Positions 542 through 29,879 of a DNA stretch of 64,000 nucleotides are shown piece by piece (positions within the stretch are counted from its first letter, which is position 1; every line of letters starts with the position of its first letter). The DNA is from Thuidium tamariscinum (Eukaryota > Streptophyta > Bryopsida > Hypnales > Thuidiaceae), in contig OX344754.2 of assembly GCA_947034885.2 (NCBI GenBank), positions 6,145,001 through 6,209,000 of the forward strand, in the 5' to 3' direction. The notes under the pieces were generated by a model. The model was not told the DNA's origin and did not search any database. It worked only from the letters and a program-made list of their open reading frames with translations. The translations under genes were made by a program, and so were the position numbers.

Positions 542-1280
542 AGGTGATTGCAAGAAAGGCCTCCCTTTTTTGTCTTGTTTTGTTGTAGTATTCATTTTTT
601 TCCAGGAGTACTTTAAAAATTGGAAAACAATTTTTTTTTAAATGAAAAATATGTCCAATGTATATTTCTTTAGGAAGAAGCTACCTTGTGAAGGAAAACT
701 GTAGAAAAAGTTTCTAAGTAGGTGAACTAAAAAAGTGCAAAATCTCATGAAAATGAGTACTTTTACATTTTAATTTGTAAAAAATAGGAAAAGACATTTA
801 AAAATAAATAAAAATTGGAAATCTTGGAAGGATTGATGATGATGAGATTTCACTAAAAGAATGATTTAAAAACCATTTTCAATGTTCAGAATTGCTTATG
901 CAAGTGGTCCCCATTTGCATAAATGTATTATTTTTTTTAAATAATAAAATAATAAAATAATGTTTTTTTATTCTTTTTGGTGGACATATGAATCTCTAGT
1001 GTGGGAGTAGACCACATAAATTTCAATTCTACATTACTAATTTTGGATACTCCACAGTACTAAAATCCCTAAATTGCAAAGTGTGACAAATTAGCTAAAT
1101 TTAAATAGAAAATGTTTTTTGAATTTTTTTGAAAAATAAGAAATCTTATTACTGTCAATTTGGTCATCTTCAATAAAAATTTCAAATGAATTGGTTTCAT
1201 GCCCCCAAAGTTATTACCAATGGAATGAAAGTCACTTCAATTGTGACACCAAAAAGAACAACCCTTTCTTGCAATCACCC
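542..1280. mobile_element. Family A miniature element, copy A1 (TSD ATGC)
   Basis: The left end reads AGGTGATTGCAAGAAA and the right end TTTCTTGCAATCACCC, which are inverted copies. The flanks are ATGC at 538-541 and ATGC at 1281-1284. The 739-bp body has no coding frame. It is nested in the long-TIR element of 1-3030. Its interior resembles copy A2, including a shared GGAGTACTTTAAAA-like stretch near the left end and a CAATAAAAATTTCAA stretch near the right end. Confidence 0.85.
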
Positions 1281-1790
1281 ATGCATGTGTGTTATTAATT
1301 TATTTGTGAGATGTGCAGTTTTTGATGTTATGAGGCTTTAACTTTTCTTGAATTTTTATAGTCTTAATTTATTTGTCACTTAATGGGTTGGATTTTTTTA
1401 ATTCGATTTTGGTAGAAATTTTCTTATTTTAGTTTATTACTAAACAAACATTTTATGCACCTTGTAAGGAGATGGAAGTCATTCAATAAGTGAACTATCA
1501 TTTCAAGAAGTCTTTATCTCTAACCGATAAAGGCCTTTATTGGCCTTTCATGGATGATGATTTTAACTAAACAAAATTCACAACTTTGATAAAACTCAAC
1601 AAAGTGACCCAAATTATAATGATAGAAACTTTGATAAGATGTATTTTGAATTTTAAAGACCTTTATAAATAAGAAATCTGAATTGAAAAATTGTAACTTT
1701 CTTTGTAATAAAGACTAGTATACCCAGTTTGCCATTGCCAAAGCCAAAATACTACTAAAAATATTTTGTTATTTTTTTATTTCAAAAACT

Positions 1791-2060
1791 TTGAAATTTA
1801 ATACCTTTTATGTGTCAGAGAGTGAAAGGGCTTTGTTGCGGTACAAGAGGTTGCATTTTGGTATGAATAGAAAGTACTATGCACAAAGGAGTGCAAGGGC
1901 TTTGTTTTGTGATGTTTGGAGTTTGGACATGCAATGTGAAAGTTATGATTTTCCAAAATTAAAGATAATTTAATTTAATAACTTTCACATAGTAGGTCCA
2001 AACATGACAAAACAAAGTTTGAGCACCCTTCTTTGCATGAACTTTTGAATGCTTTCAAGA
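1791..2060. repeat. Back-to-back copies of the family K ~150-bp unit
   Basis: The core TGTGAAAGTTAT preceded by GGGCTTTGTTTTGTG is present forward at about 1890-1950 and inverted at about 1975-2045, so two units meet head to head near 1973. The same core recurs many times at 51.6-55.4 kb and once inverted at 58.7 kb. An incidental 60-codon open frame here is not considered coding. Confidence 0.55.
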
Positions 2061-3030
2061 ACATTGTTAGACACCTTGCGGTTTCTTAGAAATCAACATA
2101 ACAAAACAGAACAAAATAAGCTAATTTAAAGTATAGATAATATATGATAATCAAAAGAATAAGTTGTTAAGATTTTTTGGATTTTCAAACTTTTATTGGT
2201 ATAGAAATGAAGTACCTTCAAATGATGTGAATGTTTACTAGGGCCTTCACTTGAGATTTGTTGGTAGATCAATTTAATGTTTATCTTCTTCAAAGACAAT
2301 AGACTAAATAAATAATACAAAGCAAGATGATATATTTAACATCTCTATTGATAAATCTATCCCAAAGATAATTAATGAAGCAATTAGTATAGTTCCTTTA
2401 TTTTCCAAATACATAATTTTTTATGTTTAGAATGTACTCTCTGAAGTAAAGACCCTACTATATGTTTTACACTAAAGTTTGTCTTGCTATTGAAGGTTAA
2501 ATCTTGAAATCCAATGGTTTTAAACATTTGCAATTCTACTTACTACTCAAACCTTCCTTCTAATTTTTTTCTCTCTTGTTACGTTATTCTACTATATCCA
2601 AAATAAAATAGTGTAGTATGAATGTTTGTCACAACAAGCTTTTGTTCAAGCAATGAAGCATAATTTTATTCATGTTTGGTTTAATGAAAGTGATCAAGCA
2701 TGGTTTTTGCAAATAAAACTTCATTAATGCATTTTTCGTTGGCTTGAGACCAAAAGGTAGGATGTTTTGCATTGACACTCTAAACACAAGTAAAAATCTA
2801 AAGAGGGTGACCTTATTTAAAAGTATGACATTGGTACCACACTAGAAGATTCCACCTTTAAGAAGTTAAAAACCACTTCAAAAAAACAATGTTGATTCTA
2901 TTAACAAAAACAAGGTAACATTCGAAATCCAATCATTTATACACAAGACGCTATAAAACACATTTTTCTATATAGAGAGTGAAGATTTGAATTAGATTTT
3001 ATAAGGTGTGGATTTGAAGAAAGGTTTATA

Positions 3031-4900
3031 GTATGAGGTTTTTTATGCAAGGATGAGAGGGTCAAACTTAGGAGGTGAGGGTTCACTAGCTAAAGACCAT
3101 AAGGCAAGGGCTAAAAAAATGTTATCATGAGTTTGTTAAAGTACCGATGTTTGTAGAAAAATTCTAGAATAGTAGAATGAAAAAGTTTGTTACATATAAA
3201 TATATGATTTTTTAATTCTTGATTGATAATTAATCAAGTTGGAAATTATCATTTTTAATTTTACTGAAAAGTGTGTATTGCAATAGTGTTTGTGCTTGAT
3301 TCTTTCTTTTGAGCTACAATGACAAGATGTAAAGTCATTTCTTCTCAATTCTAATGGATAACTATCTTTGATTCAACCTTGAAGTTATTTTTTATATTTT
3401 TTTGGCGTTTTTGTAGTACAAGATGTATTTTCTTTGATAGTTTCTTCAAGAGGGAAGAAAAGGTTGATCACAATACTACCCCATACAATAGAAAATATAT
3501 GTATTAGCCAACTTCATCACAACTTCAACTTATTCAAAGGCACCTTTAAGGTAACCGGTCATTCAAACTAGTGATGGATTTAATATTTTATGGAGATTTA
3601 GGGATTGACATATTCAAGGAGAAGTTGCTCAATTAAAATGTATGTCAAATCCCAATGAAGTAAATATTTATATAAAACTACACTTGAAATATTTGGCTTC
3701 AATTTTCTTGTAGGCCTTCTACTATTGTTGTCGATCTTCAAGTTATTTGAAGTTACATAAATTGTAGGATGTTAAAAAAACATACAAATTCCTTGTTTGG
3801 ATAGTTGTTTAGCTAAATGTCTCTTCTTCTCTCTATGAATTAGTAATTTATAGTCAAGAAGATTCATTGTGGCATACTACTTTTCTTTTCTTTTTTAGGA
3901 GGAGGGGGGGTATTTCTTATAATGCATCTATAATAACAAAAAATAAAGCATGTAAATATAGAAAATTAGATTTTCATCCATTTGTACTAAGGCATGAGCA
4001 AGTTGTCTATGAATTAAGAAATACATGAGATGAAGTTTTGTCTCCGAGTGTTATAAAAATCATATTTAAGATTCATGTAAAAAATAATCAACTAGTTTAG
4101 GAATGGCTTTGAAAACATTCTCAAATTCAACTTACCTCTTAAGTAACCAAGTCAAGCAATAAGATCAACAAAAGCCAATTTATTTTCCTTCAAGTTCATT
4201 GCTTTGGTTTCTTTAAAAACTAATATCCAATATAAGAAATGTGACAATTTGACCCCCAAAAAATTAATCATATTTCCTTTTTATCACCCCAATTTTTACA
4301 CTCTATTTTGGTAGGTAGGTATTTCTATCAAGGAAATTGTCAAAAATTAAAAGACCCTTGGTAAATCCTTTACCTTGCCACTACAAGTCTACAAAGAATT
4401 TAAATTATGAAATTTCAAAAACAATTGAATTTGTAAGAACTAATAGTTATGTAGCTCATCTAACAAAAAACCCAAGGCATTCTATAATATACAATCCATA
4501 AGAATTCAAAATTCAAAATTTTAATGTACATCTATTACATGCTACAAATAAGTCTAGATAATGACCTTTTGGTCTTTGTAAATGATTTCAAAGGTGGTAC
4601 ATCACAAAGTTCCACACTTTAGTCTCAACTTTTCTTTTTGAATCCCTTCTCCATGAGTTTTCAAATGAATACCTTTCATCTTCAATACTTTAACTTTGAC
4701 TTCTATTTTTAGAGGATACACACATATGTATATATATATATGCTAATTCTTTTGTTATTGAAATTTATTCTTATCAAAATAGGAACAAAATCATGACAAT
4801 GCAAAACTATTGTCATGAATACCAACGATGCACATTTCTTGGATTGAAGTCTCGCAAGGAGGATGACCTACAAGTGAACATTTCTTTAGAGTCTCGCTAG
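3031..4900. other. Gene-free AT-rich spacer
   Basis: No open frame, RNA gene or bounded transposon was recognised. The stretch contains homopolymer runs and ordinary AT-rich intergenic sequence up to the promoter of the hexose transporter. Confidence 0.6.
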
Positions 4901-4925
4901 TAGGATCAAAGAAGTAGTATAAAAG
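4845..4925 (+). promoter_or_regulatory. Promoter of the hexose transporter: TATA box and duplicated upstream motif
   Basis: TATAAAAG lies at 4918-4925, about 160 bp before the ATG at 5087. This would leave a 5' leader of roughly 130 nt if transcription starts about 30 bp downstream. Upstream, two related copies of TCTCGCWAGKAGGATSA sit about 46 bp apart (near 4847 and 4893) and could be a repeated factor site. This is inferred from position and motif only. Confidence 0.5.
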
Positions 4926-5086
4926 GGTACTCCTCCCAACCCATCTTCACATCTTTGTGACGAGTTGGGCTACACTTGCACTTGAACTTGTTACTTTTGA
5001 AGGCAACATCCTATTGTTGTAGAGTTTTTTGTAGTGCCAATTGGGTAGACTTGCACATTAGTTTGTAGTGAGTGTTGTTCAACAAA

Positions 5087-7124
5087 ATGGCCCATGGGGC
5101 AACGATGTCCGTTGGGGAGATCAAACACTACCCCGGTCGAACCACATTCTTTTTGTGGTTGGTTTATGTCCTTGCTGCTTCGGGTGGTCTCATGTTTGGA
5201 TATGATGTTGGCATCTCAGGTACACACTTAAGACATTATATACTAGACTTCTTTTTGGCTATAGGTTACTTTTTGTCTTCTAATAGCTTGAATATCTCCA
5301 AGTCTTAGATTTTGCAAATGGACTTTAGTTTTTAGTTCCTTGAGTTACATAGGTTTGGTGACATGAATAGATGGATTTCTTTTCGAATTCTTCTTTTTTG
5401 TCCTTTCAATCTTAATTGCTCCTTTGTGGTTCTAATTTACATATCGGTTCACTCTTGCCTAAGTTTGTTGTTGTATTCTTGTTGTAGGTGGTGTAACATC
5501 TATGGACGAGTTTCTTTCCAAGTTCTTCCCTAATGTACTCGAAAAGAAACATGCACATGCCAATATCGACAATGCTTATTGCAAATACAACGACCAAAAG
5601 CTTCAAGCGTTCACTTCTTCTCTCTACATTACGGCCCTTCTTGCCTCTTTGGTTGGCTCCTACACGACACGACATTGGGGCCGCAAGGCCACCATGCTCA
5701 TTGCCGGTGTTGCCTTTTGTCTTGGAGTTGTATTCACATCCACCGCACAAAAGATTGCCATGCTCATCATTGGTAGGATTCTACTTGGATGGGGAGTGGG
5801 CTTTGCTAATCAAGTTGTGCCACTCTACCTTTCGGAGATGGCACCCCCGAAGTGGCGTGGGGCTCTCAACATCCTCTTCCAACTTGCGGTGACCATCGGG
5901 ATCCTCTTTGCCAATTTGGTCAACTATGGCACCCAAAAGATGCAATCCAATGGGTGGCGGGTTTCCCTTGCCATTGCGGGAATCCCCGCGGCCTTGATTA
6001 CCATTGGTGGACTTGTCTTACCCGACACACCCAACTCCTTGGTGTAGCGGGGGAAACTTGACAATGGGAGGAAGGTCCTACAACGCATCCGTGGCATAGA
6101 AGAGGTGGACCAAGAGTTCCAAGACATTGTTGCCGCAAGCCATGAAGCGGCGGCCTTGGAGCAAAGTGCGTTTCGCAATGTGATGAAGCATTGCAACCGG
6201 CCCCAACTTGTCATCTCCATGCTCTTGCAATTCTTCCAACAATTCACGGGGATCAATGCCATCATGTTCTACGCACCGGTGTTGTTCCAAACGGTGGGGT
6301 TTGGGAACTCCGCATCGTTGTATTCATCTGTGATTGTAGGCGCCGTAAATGTGTTGTCCACCTTGGTGGCCGTTTTCATGGTGGACCGCAAGGGCCGTCG
6401 TTGGCTCCTCCTTGAAGCTTGTGTTCAAATGTTTGTGGCTTAGGTATAAAACTCCCACCATTGTATGATTGTTTTCCTTTCCTATTCTTGCATGCGTGTC
6501 TTAATCATCCATTTAGCTTTTCAAAAAGACACAATGGACCCCTTCATTTGTTGTCCTACTTCTAAATTAGAATGAAGGTATGTACTCCATGATGTCTATG
6601 TTTTCCATTCCAAGCCTTCCAAGACATTCATGTGTGTAAGTTGTGCTCTTGTGTAGGTGGCGGTTGGTCTCATTCTTGCTCTTGGATTGAAGGGCACCAC
6701 CATGGCCTCCTACTTGGGGTGGATTGCCGTGGTGTTGATTTGCGTGTACGTTTCGTCTTTTGCATGGTTGTGGGGGCCTTTGGGGTGGTTGATTCCAAGT
6801 GAGATCTATCCTTTGGATGTGCGATCCGCGGGTCAAGCCATCACCGTGTCCACCAACATGTTCTTCACCTTTGTCATTGGGCAAGTGTTCTTGTCCATGT
6901 TGTGTGCGTTGAAGTGGGGTGTGTTCCTTTTCTTTGTGGCGTGGGTGTTGGTGATGATGGCCTTCACGTATTGGTTTATTCCGGAGACCAAGGGCATTCC
7001 CATTGAAGAAATGGACTCGGTGTGGACGGGGCATTGGTTTTGGAAGCATTTTGTTCCTACTTCCACATGTCCTCCCCCCTTGAGTGAAGTGGAGGCCAAC
7101 AATATGGAAATGGGTGCAATGTAG
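5087..7124 (+). pseudogene. STP-type monosaccharide/H+ symporter (MFS), two in-frame TAG codons
   Basis: This is a plasma-membrane sugar transport protein of the plant STP clade of the major facilitator superfamily, which imports hexoses with protons. There are three exons: 5087-5219, 5488-6443 and 6657-7124. Introns are GT-AG (263 and 213 bp) and the joined frame is 519 codons, the usual STP size. Visible features are GYDVGISGG at residues 38-46 with the TM1 aspartate D40, the RHWGRK loop, [14 protein letters not shown] and [40 protein letters not shown], and PETKG near 472-476. The ATG was chosen because MAHGATMSVG aligns with STP N termini. Codon 231 (6045-6047, where the family has Glu or Gln) and codon 363 (6441-6443, last codon of exon 2, normally Gln) are TAG. 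There are no frameshifts, and splice sites and motifs are intact, so this is a very young pseudogene, a null allele, or an assembly error. Every other Gln codon is CAA. A weak donor (GTGGCT) a few bases upstream could skip the second stop but not the first. Confidence 0.85.
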
Positions 7125-7794
7125 ACTATTTCCTAGCTAGTTGGTACCCAAAGTGTTTAGAGGGTTTCAAAATAGCTCTTGTTGATTTTTCTAGAGAGCA
7201 AGATGTACTTGCATGAAGATGTGCATTTTGGAGGAAACATGGACAAGTGTTGAGGTTTATATTTTTGAAATATTAATATGAGCATTCAAGAACTTGAAAC
7301 ACAACTTAGCCATGGTAAAAGTAATGGAAGAAAACCACTTAGTTTGCAAGTGTTAGGGGATGTGTGTTTTTTTGTTTTCAATTTTCCTTCAAGATGATTA
7401 TTTTTTTTGAGAGAAAAAACTATGATAAAGAAAACTACATCATAGTCTACAAAAAGGAGTTCTACAATTTCTAAAGCCCTTCAATAATAGAAGTGGGTGC
7501 ACCTAATTGTAGACCACGGTAACAGTAAGTGATTTTTGAACACATGTTTCTAATTGTTTTATTGAATTGTTGCATTTGTGAAATGCTAATATTGATTTTG
7601 TTTTTTGATATATCTCAAATTTTAGAGGCTTAGGTTATGCACTTGTCTTCATTGGGTAGCATTGTAGGATACTTCTAGTTGTCTAGGAGTAGCTTTTGTG
7701 GTTGGTAGCAAGTGCATGGGCAAGTCTCATACAAGATTAGTTTCATTTGAAGGTGTTTCACCAAATTATTATATAGTTTTATTAATTATCCATA
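7125..7794 (+). other. 3' flank of the hexose transporter
   Basis: AT-rich sequence. The frame stays free of TAA and TGA until 7251 but contains three more TAG codons. No further gene is seen, and no clear polyadenylation signal was chosen. Confidence 0.4.
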
Positions 7795-8536
7795 GGGTCA
7801 TTGCAAGAAAGACCTGCGGGAAAGCGTAGCGTTTTGCACAGTATTGATTTTTTTCTTTGGGAGTACTGTATAAATAGTAACTCAATTTTAAAAATAAAAA
7901 AAAATGTTTGATGTATATACCTTTAAGAAGAAGATTCCCTAGGAAGGAAAAGCATAGAAAAATTCTCTAAGTAGGAGAACTAGAAAAGTACTGAATTTCG
8001 TGAAAATTGTAACTTTCACTATAGTTTTACATTTTAATTTGTAAAATATAGGGAAAGTAATTTTTCTTAAAACTAAAAATTTTCCATTTGGGAAGAATTT
8101 ATGGTAAAGGCATTTCACCAAAATAATGATCCGAAAACTATCTTGATTGTTCAAAAATGTGCATGCAAGGGAGGCTTGTAAGCACACATGTAGAGGAAAG
8201 AGAATAATGTTTTTTTAAATTTCCTTTGGTGCAAACATGCCTACTTAGTGTAGGAATAGACCCTAGAAATCTCAGATCTAAATTATTAATTTAAAGTACT
8301 CCCCAGTAATAAAAACCCCTAAACCGCAAAGTGTGACAAATTAGAGAAATTATAATTTAAATATAAAATGATTTTTGAAAATTTATGAAAAATAAGGGTT
8401 TTGATAACTATCAAATCAGTCATCTTCAATAAAAATTTCAAGTTCAAAGAGTTAATGCTTCAAAAGTTATAGCTCATGACAACTCCGTCACTCAAAGTGT
8501 GACGTCAAATAGTACAAGTCTTTCTTGCATTCACCC
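7795..8536. mobile_element. Family A miniature element, copy A2 (TSD CATA)
   Basis: Ends are GGGTCATTGCAAGAAA and TTTCTTGCATTCACCC. CATA flanks both sides (7791-7794 and 8537-8540). It is 742 bp, non-coding, and clearly related along its length to A1. Confidence 0.85.
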
Positions 8537-8914
8537 CATAACACCTCTACTAAGAGAGCATTTTTTTTCCTTTAGACGATATCACGGAGGCCTCAAGGAT
8601 GGGAAAAATCATTTGTGTATTCACATGTTTAGGTCAGTCATTTCAATGAAAAATGTGTAATCTTCTAACCTCATGACATTTTTTGCTGATGAATTGTTGT
8701 AAAGATAAGACAATGAAGACAATTTTTTGGGTGCTCTAGAGGTGAGAATATGTTTAATATTGAGTTTGCTGAGCGATGTGCTATTTGATTTTCCTGGCGC
8801 AACAAAGTGTGAGGTTTTTTTATGTGATTTTTGTGTAATTGCAACCAGTGTTAATCCTGTCCGTTTGGAAAAATATGCTCGATCTTCTACCTATTGTAAT
8901 TGATTTAGTCTTTG
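8537..8914. other. Gene-free spacer
   Basis: Nothing recognised between A2 and element F; no coding frame. Confidence 0.5.
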
Positions 8915-9290
8915 CATTACAGAAAATATGGACTCTCTAGAGGGCTGCCAAGGTTTGACAATCCAGTCTATATACACAGCCCTACGGAGCTACAGAAAGG
9001 GCAGAATCTTTGACAGAGTTGTGTGACAGAGGTGTGTCAGCTTGTGTGAATATCTTAGGTATGTATGAGTGTCTTGCCTTTTTTAATTCCTGGTCTGTTA
9101 GTGAAGGGTAACTATTGCATGCTCCTCTGTTTAACTAATGGTTCTTTGTAATGCAATGCATTGACAATTGCAAAACTGACATGAGCGACAATAGGGGAAA
9201 AAAATTTGTGAAGGGGAAAAAAATGTTATCTAAAGGGTCCCCTCCGGCACTTCTTAGCGGCCCTCCAAAGAGTCCATATTTTCTCTAATG
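8915..9290. mobile_element. Family F miniature element (CATTA ends)
   Basis: The two ends are inverted copies for about 30 bp: CATTACAGAAAATATGGACT on the left, and on the right the reverse complement of CATTAGAGAAAATATGGACT. The repeat then continues imperfectly into GAGGGC. The 376-bp body is non-coding. Flanks (TTG before, AAA after) give no target duplication, as in family B, whose ends also start CATTA. Confidence 0.75.
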
Positions 9291-14887: not shown

Positions 14888-14928
<41 letters not shown>

Positions 14929-15892: not shown

Positions 15893-15903
15893 TTGGACAA
15901 AAT

Positions 15904-16197: not shown

Positions 16198-16208
16198 TTG
16201 GACAAAAT

Positions 16209-16951
16209 GCTTTAAATTAAGGTTTAAAATAATATTTTTAAGATTAATTTTGGACTATAAATAAAATTCACTACATTCTAAGTGTCTTGGAAACTTTGAG
16301 ATTTAGAACACATTTCAAAAAGTAATTTGAAGTTATTGAAAAGTAGAATTTGGGGGGCATTTTCAAAGAACAACACTAGAAATTTAATTGTTGAGTGTGA
16401 AGTTGTCATTCTATAGGAATTTAGTATGTACCAAAGACTATGTGCTCATATCTATTTCACCTCTCAAAGCTTCATCTCCCTCAATTGGACAATACTCATA
16501 GAGATGTAGAAAATTAAAATAAACAATATTGATGGACCCCTCCATTCATTTCGTTTGTTTTTTGATTGATGATTGGATGGATGGAGGAACTAGTGTTAAA
16601 AGTTGTTTTTTTGCTTCTAGGTAGTAATTGAAAGTTGAATCTGACCAATTTAAAATGTCACAAGTGTAAGAATATCATTTTGAACAATTTGAAGACAAAA
16701 ATCAAGTCCAACAAGAAGATCACTATATGAGAGAGGAAGTATTTTTCAATTGAATTTTAAACCAATAATTAGAAATTTCTTCTTAAGCCAATTGTAGGTT
16801 AAATATTTATGAAGTCTACAAAAAAATTCTAAGAAAAATACTAATAAAAATAAGTTCTAATCACATTAATTCTTAATTTAAGATTTTTAAAGTATCAATT
16901 TTTGAACTAAAAAATTAATTTTTTAAGGTCTAAAACACCAACACCCTTTGA
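16209..16951. other. Gene-free AT-rich spacer
   Basis: No gene or bounded repeat recognised. Confidence 0.5.
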
Positions 16952-16955
16952 ATAA

Positions 16956-17668
16956 GGGTGATTGCAAGAAACATTTGTCCTATTTGTTGTCACACATTGC
17001 ATGCTGATCTGTTTTTTGGCCATAACTTTTGTGTTTTATCTCCGATCGACTCAAGATTTGTAGGGAAGGTACTCATAACTATTATAAAACTTCCATAATT
17101 TTTTCATGATTTTCAAAAATATTTTACTATCCAAAAACAGACCTCGATTGGATGTCATACTTGGTAGTTTAGGGATTTTTAGTACCTTTTTTTAAAATTA
17201 TTTTAGCATGAAAGTGGGATGAGATGGTCTACTAGTAGACTCATAGATTTCCTAGGAAGGATTTTTAAAAATAGTTAATTTTATGTGGTGTAGAGGTCTA
17301 CAAAGTGAACTCCTTTCTACTTGTATTTTGAAATATATAAAATATTATTTTAGTTTTTCTTTTGATGAATGACCATTTCCATAAAATTGTTGCAAATGGC
17401 CACTTTTTTTTTTTTTAAATACTTATTTTTACTATCTTTCCCTAATTAAAACGTAAAGATATGTATTTTCTTGAGGTTTGGCACTTTTCAAGTTCTCCTA
17501 TTTTGAGAATTTTTCTATCCATTTCCTTTGGTGAAGACCTTTGTCTTAGAGGTGTATACATTATTCATATTTTTCAAATTTTTTTCAAATTAATTTTCTA
17601 ATTTTAAAGTACTCTCAAAAAAATCAGCCAAACGCAACAAATAGGACAGGTGTTTCTTGCAATCACCC
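16956..17668. mobile_element. Family A miniature element, copy A3 (TSD ATAA)
   Basis: Ends are GGGTGATTGCAAGAAA and TTTCTTGCAATCACCC. ATAA flanks both sides (16952-16955 and 17669-17672). It is 713 bp and non-coding. Its left half resembles A4, including TGTTTTTTGGCCA and an ACTCAWRATTTRTAGGGAAG stretch. Confidence 0.9.
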
Positions 17669-17827
17669 ATAATAGAATATTTGCAAAATAAAGTACAAAT
17701 GTAAAGGAACTAACCTAAGAATCTTCATTAAAAAATTGATGGATAAAAATTATATTTTTGTAAGCTTGAGATGTGCTTGCATTCATCCATTGTTCAAAAT
17801 TTGAAAGTATTATCTTTAAGTGGTTAA

Positions 17828-20017
17828 CTCTTAAAGGACCATTGTTTCTATGAGGGGCACATGAAATTTCAAGTAGGTACCTATGATTTCAATTTTTTGC
17901 ATGATTCTTTGAATTCTTTTAAAATAGGAAGATATATTAGTTATACAAAAGTATAATTTTTATGTCATTGAGGTTCAAGGCCAAAAGTTATGCCACTCAA
18001 AGTGAAAGTTGTTGACTCCAAACTACAAAATAAGGAGCAAAATAAATCCAAAATAATCATTCTAGGATAGTTTATTACAGCATATATATTTGTCTAATTG
18101 AAATTTTTTGATTCATTCCATTTTAATTATTGATGTAGAAGTTATAAAGAGACTTCTTTTGCAAGCAATCAAAGCATTGTCCAAACAAAACAATACAAAG
18201 AATTTGTTTTCAAATCCAATTTTAGTACAAAAAATGTTTTATATAGTCTAGGTTTCTTTATAAATTAATTTCATTATTGTTTGGATTGAAGTGTTGTAAT
18301 TGTGCTAAGAACTATGAACAAAGCATGATTTCTTTTCATTTTATATCTACTTCTACTTAATATTCTTCTCAAGAGAGAAAATCAAATTTGTTTTTAAGAA
18401 AAAATCTACTTTCAAATTCCAATATATATTTTCAATACAAACAAAATGGAAATCAAATTCTATAGTGCAAAAATTAAGATTCAAAACCCAACAAGTGATA
18501 ACATAGAATGAAAAGGTGGATTTAAAAAAAATTCATGTCAAATTCTTGTTAATGTAACTAATGCAATTAATTTTTGTTCTTATATAGTTAATACTTTACT
18601 TAACACTATAATTATGCTTTTGACTAATGTAGCTAATACTTAATGTAATCAATGCTTCACTGATGTAGTTAATTAGTCAACTACATTAGTTAATTAGGTC
18701 TCTATATTTGGAAGTTTAGACTACATGTACATCATATTTTCATCATTCAACTATAAATGTGATATCAATTCTTGATTGTCAATTTGTCCATGATTAGTTA
18801 AATAAAATTTATTAATAGATAAACAAAAATGATTTCTATGCAATATATGGTGTCATCACTAAAGAGATATTCTAAAACACTAAGAGAATCATTAGTCCAA
18901 GTTGTATATTTGCCTTCCTTGATTTGTTTCTAACTTTTAACTAATATAAAATTAGAGCTTAAAGTTGCTATCATTGGATGTGCATCAAGGCTTTTTTTTT
19001 TGGCTTTCTAGTGCCAAATTGCACCCCAAAAAATATTTTGACTAAAAAACACTTCAAAAAATGCCAAAAAACTTGGATGAAATTGCCAAAAAACTTTGAA
19101 ATAAAAAAAAATTGATAAAATCACCTAATTGTGGATGAAAACTTTACTATACATCCAATAAGTGGATGAATGTTGCAATTTGGAGTACCATTATAACAAT
19201 TTATATTGCCACTATGGCACTTCTTCAAATATGAAAAAAACAACGTGATGTGCATCTATAAGAACTTTGAATGAAGGTAAGAAAATTTAAATTTAGACAC
19301 TGGACCATCAACATAGACATGGTTGAAAGTAAGTTCAAAGATAAAATTTAGAAAGGTCTTTTCAAAAAAATTCTAAGAAAGAAAAATCAAGAAAATGGTT
19401 TTTTAGATTTAAGAAATTTAAGATTCCACTTGTTTGATTTTCCTTTCTTAACATTTTGAAGGACCAAGGCCATTTTCTATCAAAACCACTCAAAAACTAC
19501 CAATTATTTTGTATTCACCTTAGAAAACAAAAAATTGTAATTTTTTTCAAATTCAACTATAGGATATAGTACTTCACTTGTTTGAGATAATGTAAAAATA
19601 ATTTTATCACATTTAACTGTATAGATTGGAAGACATTAGCATTCAAAATTGAACAAAAATGATTTTTTCAAGAAGTTGTTTAGGTTGCTTGAAAAACAAG
19701 ATTGTCCTTAACTAGTTCAAATAGAATAGATCAAAGCTTCACATGTAGACAAAAATAATGATATTTAAAAAAATATATTTAAAAACTATTTTGACTTTTT
19801 GTATTTGTTTTGTTTTGTCCATCAACCTCTATCATTGGCTTATAGTACTATAACTCTTGCTATCAAGCACAAATTAAAATAAAAATTATATATCCATGAA
19901 GCTCTTGTAAAAATCCCACATCTTCAAAAGTTTCAAATACATTCATTACAAATTGAGACAATAAGAACCTATTGGGCCCGAAATTGTTCCCAAAGAGTAT
20001 AAGTGGTCTATTAGGGG
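17828..20017. mobile_element. Family E piggyBac-like element, TTAA-flanked
   Basis: TTAA is at 17824-17827 and 20018-20021. The left end CTCTTAAAGGACCATT and the right end, read inward as CCCCTAATAGACCACTT, are imperfect inverted repeats resembling the CCCCTWAG ends of the other TTAA elements. The 2.19 kb body has no coding frame and contains D2. The interior does not match C1 or C2, so this is a separate family. The class assignment rests on TTAA plus end similarity. Confidence 0.5.
18987..19246. mobile_element. Family D miniature element, copy D2 (10-bp TSD)
   Basis: GATGTGCATC is repeated exactly at 18977-18986 and 19247-19256. The 260-bp element begins AAGGCTTTTTTTTTTGGC and ends ATGAAAAAAACAACGT. 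It shares with D1 the TGGATGAAATTGCC, GATGAATGTTG and ATTGCCACTATGGCACTTC-like phrases. It is nested in element E. Confidence 0.8.
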
Positions 20018-20021
20018 TTAA

Positions 20022-20819
20022 AGTATGATTTCAAGCAACTCTCCATCCCTTCTCATCCTTTAGTTAGTTTTCAATGAGCTATAATTTGGTTCTCTAATTC
20101 CAAGTGAAATTTACATTGATTGTGTCTATTTTTCAAAAAAAAATTGATGTGTACTTCCAATGAGAGAAATCACAAAGTTTTAATTCTAGCCCAAACAAAA
20201 GATAGAAGACAATTTGAATGCCAATATACTAGTTGGACTCAAGATGTTCTAAACAAGTATATTCTCATTTTAGTGTTTATAAAGTATTGTGACTGAGAAT
20301 CTTAAGAATGAATTTAGACCTACTTCTAGACCGGATTCACATTGCAAACATCAGCCCTAACAGGCAAAATAAAAATTAATGAACCGCTTGAACGATGAAT
20401 GGCCGGCCCGCCACGAATGAATGCATGGCGCTGGATCAAAAAGCGCCAATGGAAAACTCGATATCGATATCTAGGCACGTGAAGGCACCCGTATACCCGC
20501 AGGAACTGTTCCCCGAGCCCTAAACCCGACCCCGGTCAGGCGGGCACCAATCCCGCCCCTCAGCATGGGCGCGTGGTGGATAACCTTTCCCCCCATCGAC
20601 GGCCCAGATCGGAACATAATCCACTTTTGCCAAACGACATCAACCACGTGGACTTCCCGATCAAATCCGAGTTGGCACGGGTACCCGTGGCGGACCCGTG
20701 GAAACGGGTACAAAGCTGCCCATGCACAGTCCTCAAGAACCCGAGCACAACAATTGACTCGCCGCTTGCAGTCTCATCAAGCTTTGCATTGTAAGTTAGC
20801 ATCCCCGATTTTGGCAGCT
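20022..20819 (+). promoter_or_regulatory. psbR upstream region with G-boxes and a GATAAC box
   Basis: Composition shifts from AT-rich to GC-rich at about 20330. Within it lie a palindromic G-box CCACGTGG at 20644-20651, a second CACGTG at 20476-20481, and a GATAAC (I-box) at 20579-20584. These are elements known in light-regulated photosynthesis promoters. No convincing TATA box is seen near the start, which is common for photosynthesis genes. The exact transcription start is not determined. Light control is inferred from the motifs and the gene product. Confidence 0.5.
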
Positions 20820-22086
20820 ATGGCCGCGACCTCCGCTTGCTCGATTATTATGGCTCTCCCCACGGTGGCTCCGTCTTCCAAGCTGGAGAGGACGTCGTTC
20901 GCCGGGTCTGGTTTGGTCCAAGGGTTGCCTTCTTTGAGGACGATTTCCAAGGAGCGAAGCGTGCTCCGTGTGGAGGCGAGCTCCAACAGGAATAGGAAGA
21001 TCAACACCAAGGAGCCTTACGGTAATTAGCCGATCGATCGGACGTGTTTAAATGCGATCGGGATCATGCACTCGATTGACTGCGTATTGTGATGGTATTT
21101 TCTTTGCTTTGATTCTGCCATGGCTAGCTAGTTTTGAGTTCTCGACTGATGTTGTACGTCCTCGACTTTCTTTGGAACCGCAGGTCCTTCCGGCGGAACG
21201 AAGTTCGCGAAGGGAGTCGACGCCAGCGGCAGAAAGGCGACGGTGAGGAAGTAACGAAAACACGAGCGGCTTTCTCGCTGTATGCATTGGAGAAGGCGCC
21301 GTTGACAGTATCTGTGCCTTCTCTCATGATCTCAGGAGTATATGCATCGGAGAGAAGTTGTAGTAGCCCTAAATTTTGCCTTCTCTTGTACAGAGTGTGT
21401 GCACTGGAGAAGTCGTGACTGGCTTAAAAGTTCGTGTTCATTTCTTTTAAGAGTGGAAGGCAGAGTTGGAGAAGTCTTGGTTGACTTTGTTGTCTCTTAG
21501 ATCTTTGGATGGTGCACTGAGCTTCTATCTAATTCCTGCAGGGGAAGGGAGTTTACCAATTTGGGAAGAAGTATGGAGCAAATGTCGATGGTTACAGGTA
21601 AATCTTGTTCTAAGCGTGATTATTGATCTTCTTGGAAGTCGATCGTAACTTGCACTTGTACGGGCGTGTACTCAAGGCAATCGTGGGCTGAGATATGTGT
21701 TCATCCTATTTTTCGTGCAGTCCGATTTATGACACAGGCGAGTGGACCAAGTCCGGAGATACCTATGCTGGAGGTAGGCAACTTGCTACTTTTCCCTTCG
21801 AGTGTAGTATGATACAAAATTATCGACGGTGAAAAGATAAGCAAGAGTCTTCACGTATTGCTCGTATATAATAGCTGTGTACCTCAATATCTCAGTTACG
21901 ATGAATTCAGAATTTTTCGGAGGGGATTATGTATCTGTTTGCTGTTAGTGAAATCCCTGTTGACATCTTGATTTGCTCTCTGAATTGGCAGGGCAATCCG
22001 GGCTAGCCCTGTGGGCCGCACTATTGGGAGCGCTTTTAATTGGCGGCGCAATATTAGTGTACAATACTAGCGCTTTGGCTCCGTAA
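20820..22086 (+). CDS. psbR: Photosystem II 10 kDa polypeptide PsbR, chloroplast precursor (5 exons)
   Basis: PsbR is a nuclear-encoded thylakoid protein of photosystem II that supports stable docking of the oxygen-evolving complex proteins on the lumenal side. Exons are 20820-21021, 21184-21242, 21542-21597, 21721-21773 and 21992-22086. All introns are GT-AG and the joined frame is 154 codons plus TAA. Residues about 1-50 are a Ser/Arg-rich transit peptide. Next come KINTKEPYGPSGG (58-70), DASGRKATGKGVYQFGKKYG, ANVDGYSPIYDTGEW, a Gly-rich turn, a hydrophobic segment at about 128-147 (LALWAALLGALLIGGAILVY), and the conserved tail NTSALAP. The family is usually about 140 residues, so this copy looks complete. 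The start at 20820 gives a normal transit peptide; an internal ATG ten codons later is a less likely alternative. No internal stop or frameshift is present, and the gene is expected to be functional. Confidence 0.96.
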
Positions 22087-23706
22087 GATGGGAGGCTAGC
22101 TCTACCTGTACATTTGTGCTCATTGTCGTCACGATTTGCCATGCTTGTAAAATTCGGAAAGTTCTGCATGCGTAAATTCATCCTAAATTAATGACTAGTT
22201 GCAATTATTTGAAGTCTTGCCCAGTGTATGCAATGGCACCTGTATGGTGACTTTCGATTGTTTGGAATTCTTTGTTACCCATGGTTTTGAAATAACGGCA
22301 GCCAATATACGAGAGAATCAAGACTCCCCTGCTTGCATACACTGAAATGGCTGTGTAATAAGGCATGACTTCTCTCGTGTACTAGGCTTAATAATAAGTA
22401 TTTGCACTGTGTTCCTAATCGCCACTCTACAGTCATTTTCATCACACTCGGAGCATGTGCACAATTTTTCCGCACAGAATTTCTTTTTTAACAATTTATA
22501 GATCACCAACTTGCATGAGATACTGGTGATGCATACATCTTGCGTGCAATATGCGCAATTGTTCCCCAGCTTACGTTGCTTCCACTCAAATGGAGACCCA
22601 ATAGGATTTATTAAACATATTACTGGCTATCTGAAAGTAACCAATTATTGCACAAAAGTATCTCATGAGTGTCCCTTCAATATATACAAGTATTCACCAT
22701 TTTCATTCAATTTTATACTCCGTAGTAGATTTAAAGAAATGAGATATTTTCAATTCCTCTAGAAAATTCTTTTGGAAAACAAAATTAAGACAGGGGTGTG
22801 TGCAATTAAAACTGGAATTGAAAATGAAAATTTGCAGTGCATTTAACCCTAGGAAAATGCCATGGATTATACTGGATTGATGGTGGAGAGTAGATCACAT
22901 TAGTGAAAATATAAATCCTAATGTTCACCAACTAGGATTTTAATAGGTTGGAAAATGATTTATTGAAGATTGACATGTATTTCTATATGAAAAGATGCCA
23001 ATAAAGTGGTACATGACTTTTCCAATGCGGTTGTAGGGCAATTGCGACTAGCAACAAATTTATTTTAATGAGCAAAGCTACCTTTTTGACCTCATTTTGT
23101 TTTAATCGATAAAATAAATGATGGGCTAGCAGCCACTATAGAGAATGTTGTAGTTGGGTACTTTTTTGTGGATGAAATAACCGCTTGGCAATTATTTCTT
23201 CCATCACATGACACTTCAAAATCTCTCTTCCTCTACTAGCATTTTCCAACAAAGTTTGGACTACACTACTACCTAAATTTTATACAACCCCTCTCAACAA
23301 TTAAGGTAGGTGCACCTAAAAGTGCCAAGAATTGAGCTCTGGATATCTTCAAGATATAATGGTGAAGATTGAATTGAAGAGGTGGAAGAAAGTTGCAAAT
23401 AGGGAACGGAATCGTAGTCAATTTTTTTATTTTCCAAAATATGACACAACAATAGGGGTACAAAGTTTTGGCAGTAGAGTGTTTCAAAGCATTTGTAGGA
23501 TGCACTGAAATGGAGCTATAGCATTGAAGAAGTTGGATGCCCAAGTTGATAGAAGTGACAAAGAAAAAGTTGGAAACTACTCCAAAATGTGAAGAAAGTT
23601 GTGCCATTTCTATTTAATATTTAGTATCAACTATTAGGATGGTTCTCTATGACACATGTTCATTTTAGCTCTTTTCCTATAATAATTTCATTGTCATTTT
23701 AACAAT
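22087..23706. other. Gene-free spacer 3' of psbR
   Basis: The 3' untranslated region and intergenic DNA. The first ~400 bp are less AT-rich. Open frames of up to 112 codons on the minus strand (23269-23607) show no recognisable features. Confidence 0.5.
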
Positions 23707-23979
23707 CATTAGATGTTTTTTGGGAGATTAGAAGACTGTTTCAGGCCTGTTCCCATGCTGTGAACAGTCAGAATAAAATATAATAAAATAATAAAAAATC
23801 AATTAATTAATTTTTAAATATTTTTTTTCGGAAAAAAAATTAATTTTTTAATTTTTTTAATATTATTGTTTGACGTGGCAGTCTCTCGACCACGTCAGAT
23901 CGCAGATGTGGCAGTTCCCGACAGCGTTCCCACAATTGGGAACTCGCAGTCTTCTAAACTGCTGAAAAAACATCTAATG
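23707..23979. mobile_element. Family B miniature element, copy B2
   Basis: Left end CATTAGATGTTTTTTGGGAG, right end AAAAAACATCTAATG inverted. It is 273 bp. It shares AGACTGTTTCAGGCCTGTTC near one end, and GGGAAC and CCACGTCAG-type motifs inside, with copies B3 and B4. Flanks (AAT and CTT) show no target duplication. Confidence 0.75.
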
Positions 23980-24288
23980 CTTCATTAAGTACATCATTGA
24001 CAATTGCCTTGAACTTGTAAACATTGTATTGTAATCACTAACCGCCATGAACTAGTCACTAACAACTTCTACCCCAACTGAAAACCATTTCACAGCTTTT
24101 TTTAGGTGGTAGATTAAGACACTGAACGATTTTGGGTGTATCCACTATACAGAAAAGCATGTCTGAATAAAGTTCATTCTTTGTTGTCAACTTGTTATCT
24201 TTTATACATCTTCCTAATGCAATGGGCCACAACTCTAAAGAACCTATCTAAATCTTTCCCCTCTTTACTACATACCATAATGGTGCAT

Positions 24289-24880
24289 GGGTGAATGCAA
24301 GAAACACTTAAAGCCAATTGTCACACCTTAGTTTTTGATTTGTTTTTTGGCCAAAATTTTTGTGTTCTAGCTCCAAATGACTCAAAATTTATAGGGAAGC
24401 TATTCATAACCATTATATACCTTTTCTTATTTTTGAGAATTTTTCAAAAATAATTTAATATTTTTAAACAGACCCAAAAATTTCTCACAATGGATGATTT
24501 TGGGGTTCTTAGCACCATTTATCTCCAAAAAAATGAGTTTTGAGTTGAATTTTGGAGAAGATTGTCTCTTAGTAGACTTATAACTACTATCTAAAAGAAT
24601 TTCAAAAATACTTATTTTTATGTGGTATAGAAGTCTATAAAGAAAGCTTCTTTTTGAATTTTCTTCCAAAGGTATGAAACATTATTTTGGTGAGTTTTTT
24701 TGTTCAAATATCATCACCAAAAAGTCTTCTCAAGCGCCCAATTTTTTGATATTTTTTAAAAACAATATCCTATTTTATACAAATTAAAATATCAAAAGTT
24801 GTATTTTCTTCATCCGAATTCTATGTCCAAAGTTCTGGTGAAGAAAATACAACTTTTGACATAGTTTCAATTCATGCTAG
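24289..24880. mobile_element. Family A miniature element, copy A4, right end missing
   Basis: The left end GGGTGAATGCAAGAAACACT is clear and is preceded by GCAT. The interior follows A3 closely for about 400 bp, then diverges. No matching right end or GCAT was found downstream, so the copy is truncated or rearranged. Near 24800-24870 an imperfect palindrome around AAAGTTGTATTTTCTTC marks the probable breakpoint; the right border given is approximate. Confidence 0.65.
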
Positions 24881-25807
24881 TTCAACATCTCTTCCTATTG
24901 AAAAATCAACAATGTAGAGGAAAGTGAAAGGAGTGCTAGTCCTTTTAAAGAAACAAATCCTATAGATTTTCAATAACAAAGAAATATGTATAGGATAGAT
25001 AGCACAAGTCAACTATAGGGGAATTATTTATCATTGACACAAAGCTGAAACTAGTGGCATTGTCTATTTTATTTCCTTTTTGCTAAATGTATTGCTAATT
25101 TATGGATTGCGCACTCAAATCTTAGTTTCAAATTCCTTACCAATTCTAAATCACATATTCACATCTTGCATTTCATATGTATCTAGCAAAGAAGTTAGAA
25201 ATTTATAGTTAGGTAGAACAAGTTGCTATTCAATTTTTTCTCCAAGATTATGACACATTCATGGAGTGTGGCCTATAGGAAGGATTAGGAGGTTGTGCAA
25301 AATATATAATCCCAAGTGTTGTTATATGTGTCATTGATGCAATTCACAAATGTAGAATTCCTTGTTACTAGTCATGTTAGTGGAATTAGTATTTCATGCG
25401 TTGTTAAAAAGGATGTTTAAATATATATGAGTTTTGAAGTTCTTGTTTGACTTTGTAGGTGTCAATGTTGGATTCTTGTATGTTCTAACTTTGTCAAGTT
25501 CTTGTTTGCTATGAAAAATGGGAATTTAAGACTCAAAGGAAAGCCAAAATTCCTTTTCTCTTGTTTACAATTTTAGTTCAAGTAGCCCTAGAGCAAGGAG
25601 ATAGTTACTAAGAAGTCAAGGTGAATAGTGCAACAATATGGTAGCAAAAATAGGTTGGTCAATTCTAGTGGTTGTTAGAAATAGACAACACTTAGTTTAT
25701 ACCTTCTATCCAATTTGTACCTTCTTTATTTGAAAAAAGCTTATTCTTAGCCCAAGAGTGACAATTACAAGGCATTATTGTTGCCTCCTTTCATTTAAGA
25801 GGAGTTT
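24881..25807. other. Gene-free AT-rich spacer
   Basis: No gene or bounded repeat recognised. Confidence 0.5.
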
Positions 25808-25811
25808 TATT

Positions 25812-26513
25812 GGGTGATTGCATAAAACACCAAGCAATTTTGTTGCATTTTTATAGTATTCATGCCTTTTTTTCTAGAGTACTTTAAAATTAGAAAAATA
25901 ATTTTTAATTATTTTTAATAAATATGGCCAACGTATACACCTATAATTGAAGGTAACCATTGAAGGAAAATCATAGAAAAATTCTTTAAGTAGGAGAACT
26001 AGAAAAGTGTCAAATCTCAAGAAAATATATATTTTGATGTTTCAATTAATAAAAAATAGGATTTAAAAAGAATTGTCCATTTACAAGAACTTTATTAAGA
26101 TGGTAATCCACCAAAAAAACCACCATATTTCAAAATGCAAGTAGAAAGAGGCTCAGTTTATAAACTTCTAAACAACATATTATTATTTATTTCTAGAAAT
26201 TCTTCATAGGACGTCTATAAGTCTACTAGAAAACCATCTCCTCTAAATTTTAGCTTTAAATTCACTAATTTGAGTACTCATTAGTACTAAAAAATCCAAA
26301 ATTGGCAAGTGTGATATATAATTGGGGGCTATTTTTGGATAATAAAACATTTTAAGAAGATTCCAAAAGATCAGATTAGTTGTATATTAGTTAGAAGTAC
26401 CTTGTCTATAAATTTTAAGTCATTTGAAGACAAAATGCAAAATTTATGGCCAGAAAGGTAATTAGTTAGAGGTGTGTGATAAAAAACAGTACAAGTATTT
26501 CATACAATCATTC
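25812..26513. mobile_element. Family A miniature element, copy A5 (TSD TATT)
   Basis: Ends are GGGTGATTGCATAAAACA and TTTCATACAATCATTC. TATT flanks both sides (25808-25811 and 26514-26517). It is 702 bp, non-coding, with more diverged ends than the other copies. Confidence 0.8.
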
Positions 26514-26517
26514 TATT

Positions 26518-27162
26518 ATGTGATTCTAAGATCATGTGTACATGAACTTAGAAGACTATTTACATATGCTACAAGTGTCTATAATTCTATATTATAGAAA
26601 CCATTCATGACTATAGAATACTTACGTTATAGGTGTTTATGTTATAAGTATCTTCCACTGTTGTAGGATATTTACTTGTATATAGTTATGCTCAAGACTT
26701 ACATGTTCACATTCCACACTCACATGCTAGCATCGTTGTTTCAAGTGACTACAATGACATTGAACTAAGCTCTTTAGTTCCCAACTAAAGGTACAATTTC
26801 TTTTAAGGCCACTTTGCACTTAGAGGTTGGGCTAATGCCTTTCCAAGTCAATTGTACAAAATTTCAATCCCTTTTTGGGCTAGAGGCCAACCTCAACTAG
26901 TCATTATAATAAGATTATAAATAGGGCCAATTTTTTCATAATCAATTGTGTAAAGGCCTTGAGGCCAAGAAACTGGGCTGATTCTAGAAAAACTTCCAAA
27001 AAAATAAGAGAAGGGTTGAAATTTCAGGGCAACTTTACACCTAGAGGCTAGGCCAATCTACCTTGAGGCCGATTGTATAAAATCCAATAAATTTGATTTG
27101 CTGAAAAAAAATAATGTTTTATGAGATAAATTTTTTAATTGAAATTTGACTTTGGCCCCTAG
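26518..27162. other. Gene-free spacer
   Basis: No gene is seen. Short phrases of the type TTGAGGCC and CTAGAGGCCAA recur through 26.8-28.1 kb without forming a clear tandem array. Confidence 0.4.
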
Positions 27163-27166
27163 GCCA

Positions 27167-27914
27167 CAGTCATTGCAAGAAACACTTCACGTTTTTGTCT
27201 CAAAAAAACAACTTTTGGATGTAGGACTGGCAGTCTTGTGCGATCCTACTATAACTGCGCATCTACACTGCGCTTGTCAATGTCAACCATTGATTTCAGG
27301 CGCCTATAAATCTCGGCCATCGATTTAGTACTATGTAATACTACAAAGTACTATAAAGTACTACTCATGCCACTGAGAGTAGAAAATAGCAGAAAAGAGG
27401 TCTATGGACCTTTGCATTTTTAGTAATTCAAAAAAAATTCAAAATTTTATTTAAAAAAAATCCATGTTTCTAAACAAAATTGTGCTTACATTGCAACAAA
27501 AATTCCTTTAGGAAATTTTTTCCCTCTTCATAGCCATTGTACCTAGGAAGGTCATTTTGACCCCATGTGTGCAATAGACATGTTGCTAATTTCATAAAAA
27601 CTCATCATCATCCCTTGTAATGTTAGTAGACCTCCAACTTGTCCAATTTGTGACTTCAAATTCGGATTTTTGGGTCAAAAATAGGACTAGAAACCTCCAA
27701 AATGGCCAAAGTTGACATCCAATTGGGGGCAATTTAAAAATAGTAAAATAATTTTGAAAATATTGAAAAATTTAATCAACATCTAAAACTTTAGTGTGCA
27801 CCTTCGTTTCAAATTTTAAGACCATAAGATAAAAGATGAAAAAGTTATGAGCAAAAAACTACTTGTTGGAGGTCAAGGGGACAAAAAAAGGACAAGTGTT
27901 TCTTGTAATCACCC
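27167..27914. mobile_element. Family A miniature element, copy A6 (TSD GCCA)
   Basis: Left end CAGTCATTGCAAGAAACACT, right end GTGTTTCTTGTAATCACCC. GCCA flanks both sides (27163-27166 and 27915-27918). It is 748 bp and non-coding. Confidence 0.85.
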
Positions 27915-29877: not shown

Positions 29878-29879
29878 CC

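What the first reader, a model, noticed from the sequence alone, without database searches (positions are those of the whole stretch)
542..27914. Family A: a MITE family with variable but exact 4-bp target duplications
Five complete copies (542-1280, 7795-8536, 16956-17668, 25812-26513, 27167-27914) share GGGTGATTGCAAGAAA-type inverted ends and lengths of 702-748 bp. Each has a perfect 4-bp flanking repeat of different sequence: ATGC, CATA, ATAA, TATT, GCCA. Few transposon superfamilies make 4-bp duplications without a fixed target; piggyBac and Kolobok use TTAA. The flanks do not fit hAT (8 bp), Mutator (9-11), PIF/Harbinger (3) or mariner (TA). The driving transposase is not in this window.
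Basis: partly seen in the sequence, partly recalled or inferred. Interest (0 to 1): 0.72.

Follow-up and report, generated by a model that had tools for sequence, protein, structure and literature searches.

The report
Abundant 4-bp-TSD MITE family
A plant genome, probably a moss, carries thousands of copies of a small "hitch-hiker" jumping element that duplicates exactly four, nearly freely chosen, bases where it lands; the enzyme that moves it was not found, but another abundant transposon type in the same genome leaves the same kind of scar.

Summary
All five copies lie at the stated coordinates with the stated 4-bp repeats; a sixth, truncated copy (24289-24810) was missed. The window lies in a 363-Mb genome, by inference a moss. 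The 16-base end occurs 16,436 times there with at most one mismatch (reversed control: 4). Of 60 fetched end pairs 650-800 bp apart, 52 have an exact 4-bp duplication and none match at 5-10 bp. The TSDs are of 38 kinds, weakly AT-rich. Uninterrupted relatives of several insertion sites carry the 4-mer once. So this is a real, high-copy MITE family (three subfamilies in the sample) moved with a 4-bp stagger and no fixed target. That scar is known from Sola, reported from the moss Physcomitrella. No autonomous copy with these ends was found. piggyBac, also in the window, has CCCTAG ends next to TTAA in the one lineage read. DUF7869, the most frequent of three transposase-like families searched, sits in 17.5-22.8 kb TIR elements; the two copies tested have unrelated 4-bp TSDs (TGTC, GACT). 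A Sola-like or DUF7869 enzyme is the likeliest driver, but no such element with family A ends was seen.

The parts
542..1280 (+). Family A copy 1 (beta subfamily), 739 bp; TSD ATGC at 538-541 and 1281-1284
7795..8536 (+). Family A copy 2 (beta subfamily), 742 bp; TSD CATA at 7791-7794 and 8537-8540
16956..17668 (-). Family A copy 3 (gamma subfamily), 713 bp, perfect 16-base ends; TSD ATAA at 16952-16955 and 17669-17672
25812..26513 (+). Family A copy 4 (beta/gamma-like interior, not in the clustering), 702 bp, right end degenerate; TSD TATT at 25808-25811 and 26514-26517
27167..27914 (-). Family A copy 5 (alpha subfamily, different interior), 748 bp; TSD GCCA at 27163-27166 and 27915-27918
24289..24810 (+).
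32642..33238 (-). Context only, not part of family A: C-terminal part of a piggyBac-like transposase gene (PF13843, E 9.3e-7)

Best explanation
Family A is a large family of non-autonomous TIR DNA transposons (MITEs, mostly about 700-760 bp, ends GGGT[G/C]ATTGCAAGAAA within an imperfect inverted repeat of about 30 bp), moved in trans by a cut-and-paste transposase that joins the element to target strands staggered by 4 bp with almost no sequence preference. Shown: the ends, the exact 4-bp TSD in most sampled copies, the diversity of TSDs, single-copy 4-mers in related empty sites, thousands of ends in the genome, and subfamily members up to 97% alike. Inferred: the driver is a transposase of the 4-bp-TSD kind to which Sola belongs. 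The best candidate class in this genome is the very abundant DUF7869 protein family; one of its lineages forms 17.5-22.8 kb TIR elements with 4-bp TSDs of no fixed sequence, and its lineages have different ends. Not shown: a DUF7869 (or any) element with family A ends, and whether DUF7869 is the Sola transposase.
For: Copies, ends and TSDs. Genome-wide ends: 16,436 against 4. TSD diversity: 38 kinds in 52 insertions, GC 25% against 35% in the window. Related empty sites with the 4-mer once and in register: L019 TATT (27 spanning hits), L043 TTTT (42), L055 CTTA (23), L056 CTAA (16), L004 TCAA (9). Subfamilies and pairs up to 97% identical. DUF7869: 855 first-look candidates, 150 scored; 374 exact matches to a GHTHxD[IVM]D-type codon pattern against 0 reversed; 18 opposite pairs of AAGGCCTTATTCG... 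ends 17.5-22.8 kb apart among the first 100 of 143 ends listed, 17 of the 18 with a listed DUF7869 hit about 1.4 kb inside one end (by hand); TSD TGTC and GACT in the 2 of 2 copies read. Sola: 4-bp TSDs, variable ends, some over 15 kb, Physcomitrella (passages of PMC10741241, PMC9033089); a Sola1 element of 3,270 bp with 32-bp ITR and 4-bp TSD (passage of PMC6875170).
Against: No long copy with family A ends was found: 30 listed end loci, five orphan ends extended to 8 kb and one 1.1-kb pair gave only MITEs, truncations, nested insertions or neighbours. The two DUF7869 lineages whose 3' ends were read end in AAGGCCTTATTCG... and CACTATCC..., not in family A ends. DUF7869 hits pile up on C11 (47 of the 150 scored, counted by eye) while no row of the best-hit lists for the beta query (41 rows) and the alpha query (47 rows) lies there. 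Of three DUF7869 motifs listed in C1:0-9 Mb, none has a listed exact family A end (capped at 100 places) about 1.7 kb downstream. CACTA-like terminal letters in one DUF7869 lineage could mean that DUF7869 belongs to the CACTA group rather than to Sola. The 4-bp TSD of DUF7869 elements rests on two copies of one lineage.
Confidence: 0.55

Rival explanations
1. Family A is driven by an ordinary Sola1 element, unrelated to DUF7869, that is rare, decayed or not recognised by Pfam. (This overlaps with the broad form of the best explanation, so the odds do not add to exactly 1.)
For: 4-bp TSD, TIR of about 30 bp and a plant host with a moss-like assembly fit published Sola descriptions. No Sola model or sequence was at hand, so Sola proteins could not have been seen.
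Against: No direct evidence; DUF7869 already supplies an abundant 4-bp-TSD transposon type in this genome.
Confidence: 0.25
2. A piggyBac-like transposase with relaxed target choice drives family A: piggyBac also makes 4-bp TSDs, lies in the window and is abundant.
For: PF13843 in the window and 116 scored of 658 candidates genome-wide.
Against: A recently duplicated piggyBac pair shares its 3' end ...CTTCTAGGG and the following TTAA and diverges just after it, i.e. looks canonical; only this one end was read. None of 12 piggyBac loci has a family A end with fewer than 4 mismatches within 1.5 kb of the domain. Family A ends start with GGG, not CCC.
Confidence: 0.05
3. A PIF/Harbinger-type (IS5-like) enzyme with an unusual 4-bp stagger drives family A; the GGG ends look Harbinger-like (recalled).
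For: DDE_Tnp_4 is abundant (150 scored of 331 candidates).
Against: PIF/Harbinger (Tourist) makes 3-bp TAA/TTA TSDs (passage); 2 of 60 pairs match at 3 bp, against 52 at 4 bp. One Harbinger locus (5.6 kb, L076) shows no family A end with fewer than 4 mismatches.
Confidence: 0.08
4. The driver belongs to a superfamily not described before.
For: Unassigned ends; no autonomous copy found; a 2025 survey of 207 plant genomes (four of them bryophytes) sorts plant MITEs into five superfamilies plus Micron (passages of PMC12550479).
Against: Known 4-bp-TSD superfamilies suffice; absence of the driver reflects the small share of the genome that could be read (about 300 kb plus the window).
Confidence: 0.1

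Closest known systems
Sola transposons (Sola1, Sola2, Sola3), as in Physcomitrella
   Same: 4-bp TSD; variable terminal sequences; TIRs (11-1,124 bp reported, 32 bp in one described Sola1); present in a moss
   Different: Sola2 elements described with AT-rich AWWT TSDs, family A with almost any 4-mer; no Sola transposase has been tied to family A ends; family A copies are short and non-coding
[quoted passage not shown]
   Same: Short, AT-rich, non-coding, TIRs, thousands of copies, subfamilies
   Different: TSD of 4 bp, rather than 2 (TA), 3 (TAA/TTA), 7-12, 3 and 8 bp (the last recalled); longer than most. A second review also lists Novosib, P and piggyBac MITEs in angiosperms
DUF7869 giant TIR elements of the same genome
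   Same: 4-bp TSDs with no fixed sequence in the 2 of 2 copies read; very abundant
   Different: 17.5-22.8 kb, coding, and the two lineages read have other end sequences
piggyBac
   Same: 4-bp TSD; present in window and genome
   Different: TTAA target and CCC... ends in the lineage read
Kolobok
   Same: 5'-RR...YY-3' ends fit GGG...CCC; TSD of 4 bp
   Different: TTAA-specific in the standard description; the KolobokP lineage, described from animals, has TSDs of 3-5 bp (passages)

Membership tests
MITE (non-autonomous TIR transposon) | Short, no coding capacity, inverted ends, TSD, many copies | tested here: met
   Ends and TSDs; no frame over about 75 residues in the alpha or beta consensus, judged by eye, gamma not made; 16,436 ends
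Sola | 4-bp target site duplication | tested here: met
   52 of 60 pairs; criterion from passages of PMC10741241
Sola | DDD transposase of the Sola type encoded by a copy with these ends | tested here: inconclusive
   No long copy found; no Sola sequence available to search with
Sola2 | AT-rich AWWT-type TSD | tested here: not met
   38 kinds of TSD, incl. CCTC, TGGG, GCCA; criterion from passages of PMC3627910
piggyBac | TTAA target | tested here: not met
   TTAA in 1 of 52
piggyBac | CCC... ends next to a PF13843 gene | tested here: not met
   Family A ends GGG; piggyBac 3' end here reads CCCTAGAAGG inwards, next to TTAA (one lineage, one end); 12 of 12 loci without a family A end under 4 mismatches
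Kolobok | TTAA-specific 4-bp TSD | tested here: not met
   criterion from passages of PMC9587614
PIF/Harbinger | 3-bp TAA/TTA TSD | tested here: not met
   3-bp match in 2 of 60 pairs
hAT / Mutator | 8-bp (recalled) / 7-12-bp TSD | tested here: not met
   0 of 60 pairs match at 7, 8, 9 or 10 bp; 11 and 12 bp were not in that table
Ginger | 5'-TG...CA-3' ends, TSD 4-6 bp | tested here: not met
   Ends GGG...CCC; criterion from passages of PMC10741241
Chapaev / Academ | 3-4-bp TSD (recalled) with own transposase | not testable with these tools
   No model or sequence at hand; criterion recalled, from no call
DUF7869 elements | 4-bp TSD of free sequence | tested here: met
   Family A: 52 of 60 pairs. 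DUF7869: TGTC and GACT in 2 of 2 copies of one lineage
DUF7869 elements | A DUF7869 gene between family A ends | tested here: inconclusive
   Two lineages read at the 3' end have AAGGCCTT... and CACTATCC..., not family A ends; other lineages not read

The most novel reading that the evidence does not exclude
DUF7869 is the transposase of a major, so far unnamed group of giant (about 17.5-23 kb) TIR transposons that insert with a 4-bp stagger at nearly any sequence, and a further lineage of this group mobilises the thousands of family A MITEs, making it a dominant force in the architecture of this genome.
Probability: 0.3. Interest if true: 0.68.

Novelty: new member of a known kind. Interest (0 to 1): 0.46.

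Why it matters
Standard plant MITE annotation sorts MITEs into superfamilies whose TSDs are not 4 bp with a free sequence, so a large 4-bp family could be misfiled or missed. With more than eight thousand ends per strand in a 363-Mb genome, this family is a sizeable component. If its driver is a DUF7869 or Sola-type enzyme, it would tie an unnamed protein domain to a transposition reaction with a near-random 4-bp target, which is directly testable.

Tried and rejected
Autonomous partner. (1) piggyBac, present in the window and abundant: rejected for the lineage read, with a CCCTAGAAGG end next to TTAA. (2) Harbinger: one 5.6-kb locus of a multiplied 458-aa type (L076) has no family A end with fewer than 4 mismatches. 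(3) Long copies: seven of the first 30 exact-end loci lacked a partner at 650-800 bp; five were extended to 8 kb. One is a MITE with an insertion of about 1.7 kb, one is interrupted by about 0.9 kb, and three match MITEs only over 195-500 bp from the end. The other two (L016, L028) were not extended; both are covered by MITE sequence within their loci. A 1,130-bp end pair was a gamma MITE beside a truncated beta MITE. (4) Coding remnants in the alpha and beta consensus: none seen. (5) DUF7869: the two lineages read have other ends; an attempt to get both ends of the CACTATCC lineage by pattern gave 9 hits and no opposite pair at element distance; cross-checking motif and end positions on C1:0-9 Mb had little power. 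(6) A 25-base form of the end in viral contigs: none. A DUF7869 relative in viral contigs: 22 pattern matches, none confirmed. No match of the L048 piece in PDB sequences up to E 1 or in NCBIfam up to E 1.

Literature: searches. One search searched four 10-base forms of the end: 166 papers, 20 listed; by title none is on DNA transposons (one is on endogenous retroviruses), and none was opened. The held library has no paper that names DUF7869 or PF25273. Papers were seen as search listings, abstract openings or passages only; none was read whole. The founding Sola paper and a transposase review were not held, so what they say is recalled.
Full report
Observation. None of the five also matches at 3, 5, 8 or 9 bp. 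Three of the ten ends have more than one mismatch. A sixth copy with only its left end lies at 24289-24810. Copies 1-4 share interior blocks; copy 5 shares little beyond the ends.

Genome. The window is G000:C6:6145001-6209000 of a 363-Mb assembly with 19 contigs, 11 of them seen to reach 17 Mb or more. A sugar-transporter frame at 5502-6047 is closest to sugar transport protein 10 among solved structures (that this is an Arabidopsis protein is recalled). Eleven large contigs and a few hundred Mb match several moss assemblies (abstracts listed: 275, 326 and 413 Mb with 11 pseudomolecules each). The host is therefore probably a moss; this is inference.

Abundance. The end GGGTGATTGCAAGAAA occurs 8,170 + 8,266 times with at most one mismatch, against 1 + 3 for the pattern read backwards. 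In the window only 8 of 11 family A ends meet that criterion, so 16,436 ends is a lower bound, corresponding to roughly 8,000 copies or more.

TSD. Pairing ends (at most 4 mismatches each, sum at most 5) in loci L001-L058 and the window gave 82 raw pairs 300-1500 bp apart, chance pairs included, of which 53 have an exact 4-bp duplication as the longest match. Restricted to 650-800 bp there are 60 pairs; equal flanks of length 2 to 10 occur in 6, 2, 52, 0, 0, 0, 0, 0 and 0 of them. The chance of a 4-mer match is about 0.006 by composition, and 12 in about 1,000 draws when flanks of different pairs are matched. The eight misses are listed; at least one of them is a pairing with a neighbouring chance end. 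L047 is counted twice among the 52. L001-L008 and L039-L058 are best BLAST hits and so biased to well-kept copies; in the first 30 exact ends by position, 23 of 30 have a partner and 20 of those 23 have the TSD.

Target. The 52 insertions show 38 kinds of TSD, TTAA once, with 25% GC against 35% in the window, and a weak symmetric T...A preference at the edges. Seventeen insertions had a related sequence that spans the join of their two flanks. In L019 (TATT), L043 (TTTT), L055 (CTTA), L056 (CTAA) and L004 (TCAA) a relative carries the 4-mer once and in register; in L015 and L042 it does so with one substitution. Several others are gapped or poorly matched at the join and say less. This shows that the 4 bp are duplicated target and not element.

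Subfamilies and age. The 52 copies (51 independent) fall into three groups of 30, 13 and 9, called alpha, beta and gamma here (single linkage above 70% over 450 bp). The best pairs reach 97% identity in alpha, apart from the self-match of the double-counted L047. Divergence from the subfamily consensus has medians of 4.3% (29 alpha, range 2.3-41.1%), 10.5% (13 beta, 5.5-26.2%) and 9.7% (9 gamma, 5.4-18.5%). The alpha sample is dominated by best hits, so its median is too low for the whole subfamily, and its far outliers are poorly aligned members. Neither the alpha nor the beta consensus has a frame over about 75 residues, judged by eye. The shared end extends to about 30 bp, with TTT at positions 28-30 in 94-97% of 104 ends per position.

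Looking for the driver. No copy longer than a MITE was found that was not explained by a nested insertion: L071 holds an insertion of about 1.7 kb, L019 holds a second MITE, and a 1,130-bp pair is two neighbouring copies. Over the window and the 75 loci then held, these two (L019, L071) were the only pairs of ends 0.8-12 kb apart with equal TSDs at the cut-offs used. The search covered about 300 kb plus the window, because whole-genome letters are capped; a rare autonomous element could easily be missed.

piggyBac. The genome has 116 scored of 658 first-look candidates. None of 12 fetched loci has a family A end with fewer than 4 mismatches. Two 99.9% identical copies share ...CTTCTAGGG and the next TTAA and diverge after it. 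Only that end was read, but it is a canonical piggyBac end and not a family A end.

DUF7869. An alpha MITE (L048, TSD GTCA) sits in the 3' part of a gene with a DUF7869 domain (PF25273, E 7e-29). Of the three families searched in this genome it has the most first-look candidates: 855, against 658 for PF13843 and 331 for PF13359. There are 374 exact matches to a degenerate GHTHxD[IVM]D codon pattern (control 0). Two near-identical copies share a 3' end ...AATAAGGCCTT. The inward 25-mer occurs 143 times, and the first 100 listed include 18 opposite pairs 17.5-22.8 kb apart (counted by hand). In 17 of the 18 a listed DUF7869 hit lies about 1.4 kb inside one end; for C11:1276368-1294491 no hit is in the capped lists. 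The flanks of the C4 copy are TGTC/TGTC and those of the C10 copy GACT/GACT. So this lineage makes 4-bp TSDs of free sequence in both copies tested. The L048 lineage ends ...GGATAGTG, read inwards CACTATCC; its TSD could not be read. Neither end is a family A end. Six of the 26 motif loci listed on C1 have a listed exact AAGGCCTT... end about 1.6-2 kb downstream; the other 20 do not (compared by hand), so many lineages or decayed copies remain unread.

Interpretation. The scar needs a transposase with a 4-bp stagger and little target choice. Among superfamilies described with 4-bp TSDs, Sola fits best: variable ends, sizes to over 15 kb, and members in the moss Physcomitrella (passages). DUF7869 elements of this genome share the scar and are very common. 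Whether DUF7869 is a Sola transposase, a CACTA-group enzyme (one lineage has CACTA-like terminal letters) or something unnamed could not be settled. No paper in the held library mentions DUF7869.

Against the reading: no DUF7869 element with family A ends was seen. DUF7869 hits are concentrated on C11 (47 of 150 scored, counted by eye), where none of the 41 listed beta and 47 listed alpha MITE matches lie (best-hit lists only). Repbase files non-autonomous elements by TSD length and the first 11 bases (passage of PMC4455052); no Repbase was at hand to compare those bases.

Verdict. A real, very abundant MITE family with strict 4-bp, target-free duplications, outside the five superfamilies that a 207-genome survey used for plant MITEs (passages of PMC12550479), most probably powered by a Sola-like or DUF7869-type transposase. 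It is ordinary in kind and uncommon in superfamily, and its driver is testable.

Noticed in passing
G000 C4:2002246-2021096, C10:13611634-13630111 and 16 further end pairs (L080-L083): Giant TIR elements of 17.5-22.8 kb with AAGGCCTTATTCGTTAAAATGAGAC ends, 17 of the 18 pairs with a listed DUF7869 hit about 1.4 kb inside one end; 4-bp TSDs TGTC and GACT in the two read. Possibly an unnamed transposon group.
   Followed up: partly
G000 contig C11: 47 of the 150 scored DUF7869 hits lie on C11, a contig of at least 17.4 Mb, while none of the listed best alpha and beta MITE matches do; possibly a sex chromosome or another TE-rich chromosome.
   Followed up: no
G000, PF13843 hits, L059-L070, L077, L078: Very many piggyBac elements in a plant genome: 658 first-look candidates, some copies 99.7-99.9% identical over more than 4 kb, open frames of about 1,000 aa.
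   Followed up: partly
window 32642-36333: Probably degraded piggyBac-like gene region on the minus strand; a recognisable transposase domain was tested only at 32642-33238.
   Followed up: partly
window 28468-29878: Tandem repeats of a 177-bp unit whose two halves form long inverted arms (397 bp, 95% complementary, 248 bp apart): a satellite array with an internal inversion.
   Followed up: no
L048:1-2871: DUF7869 gene remnant whose element ends CACTATCC..., i.e. CACTA-like terminal letters, with a family A alpha MITE (TSD GTCA) in its 3' part.
   Followed up: partly
L076 (G000 C2:10727000-10732600): Multiplied Harbinger-type element: 458-aa DDE_Tnp_4 frame with an upstream frame that looks like its companion protein; several hits of equal score.
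   Followed up: no
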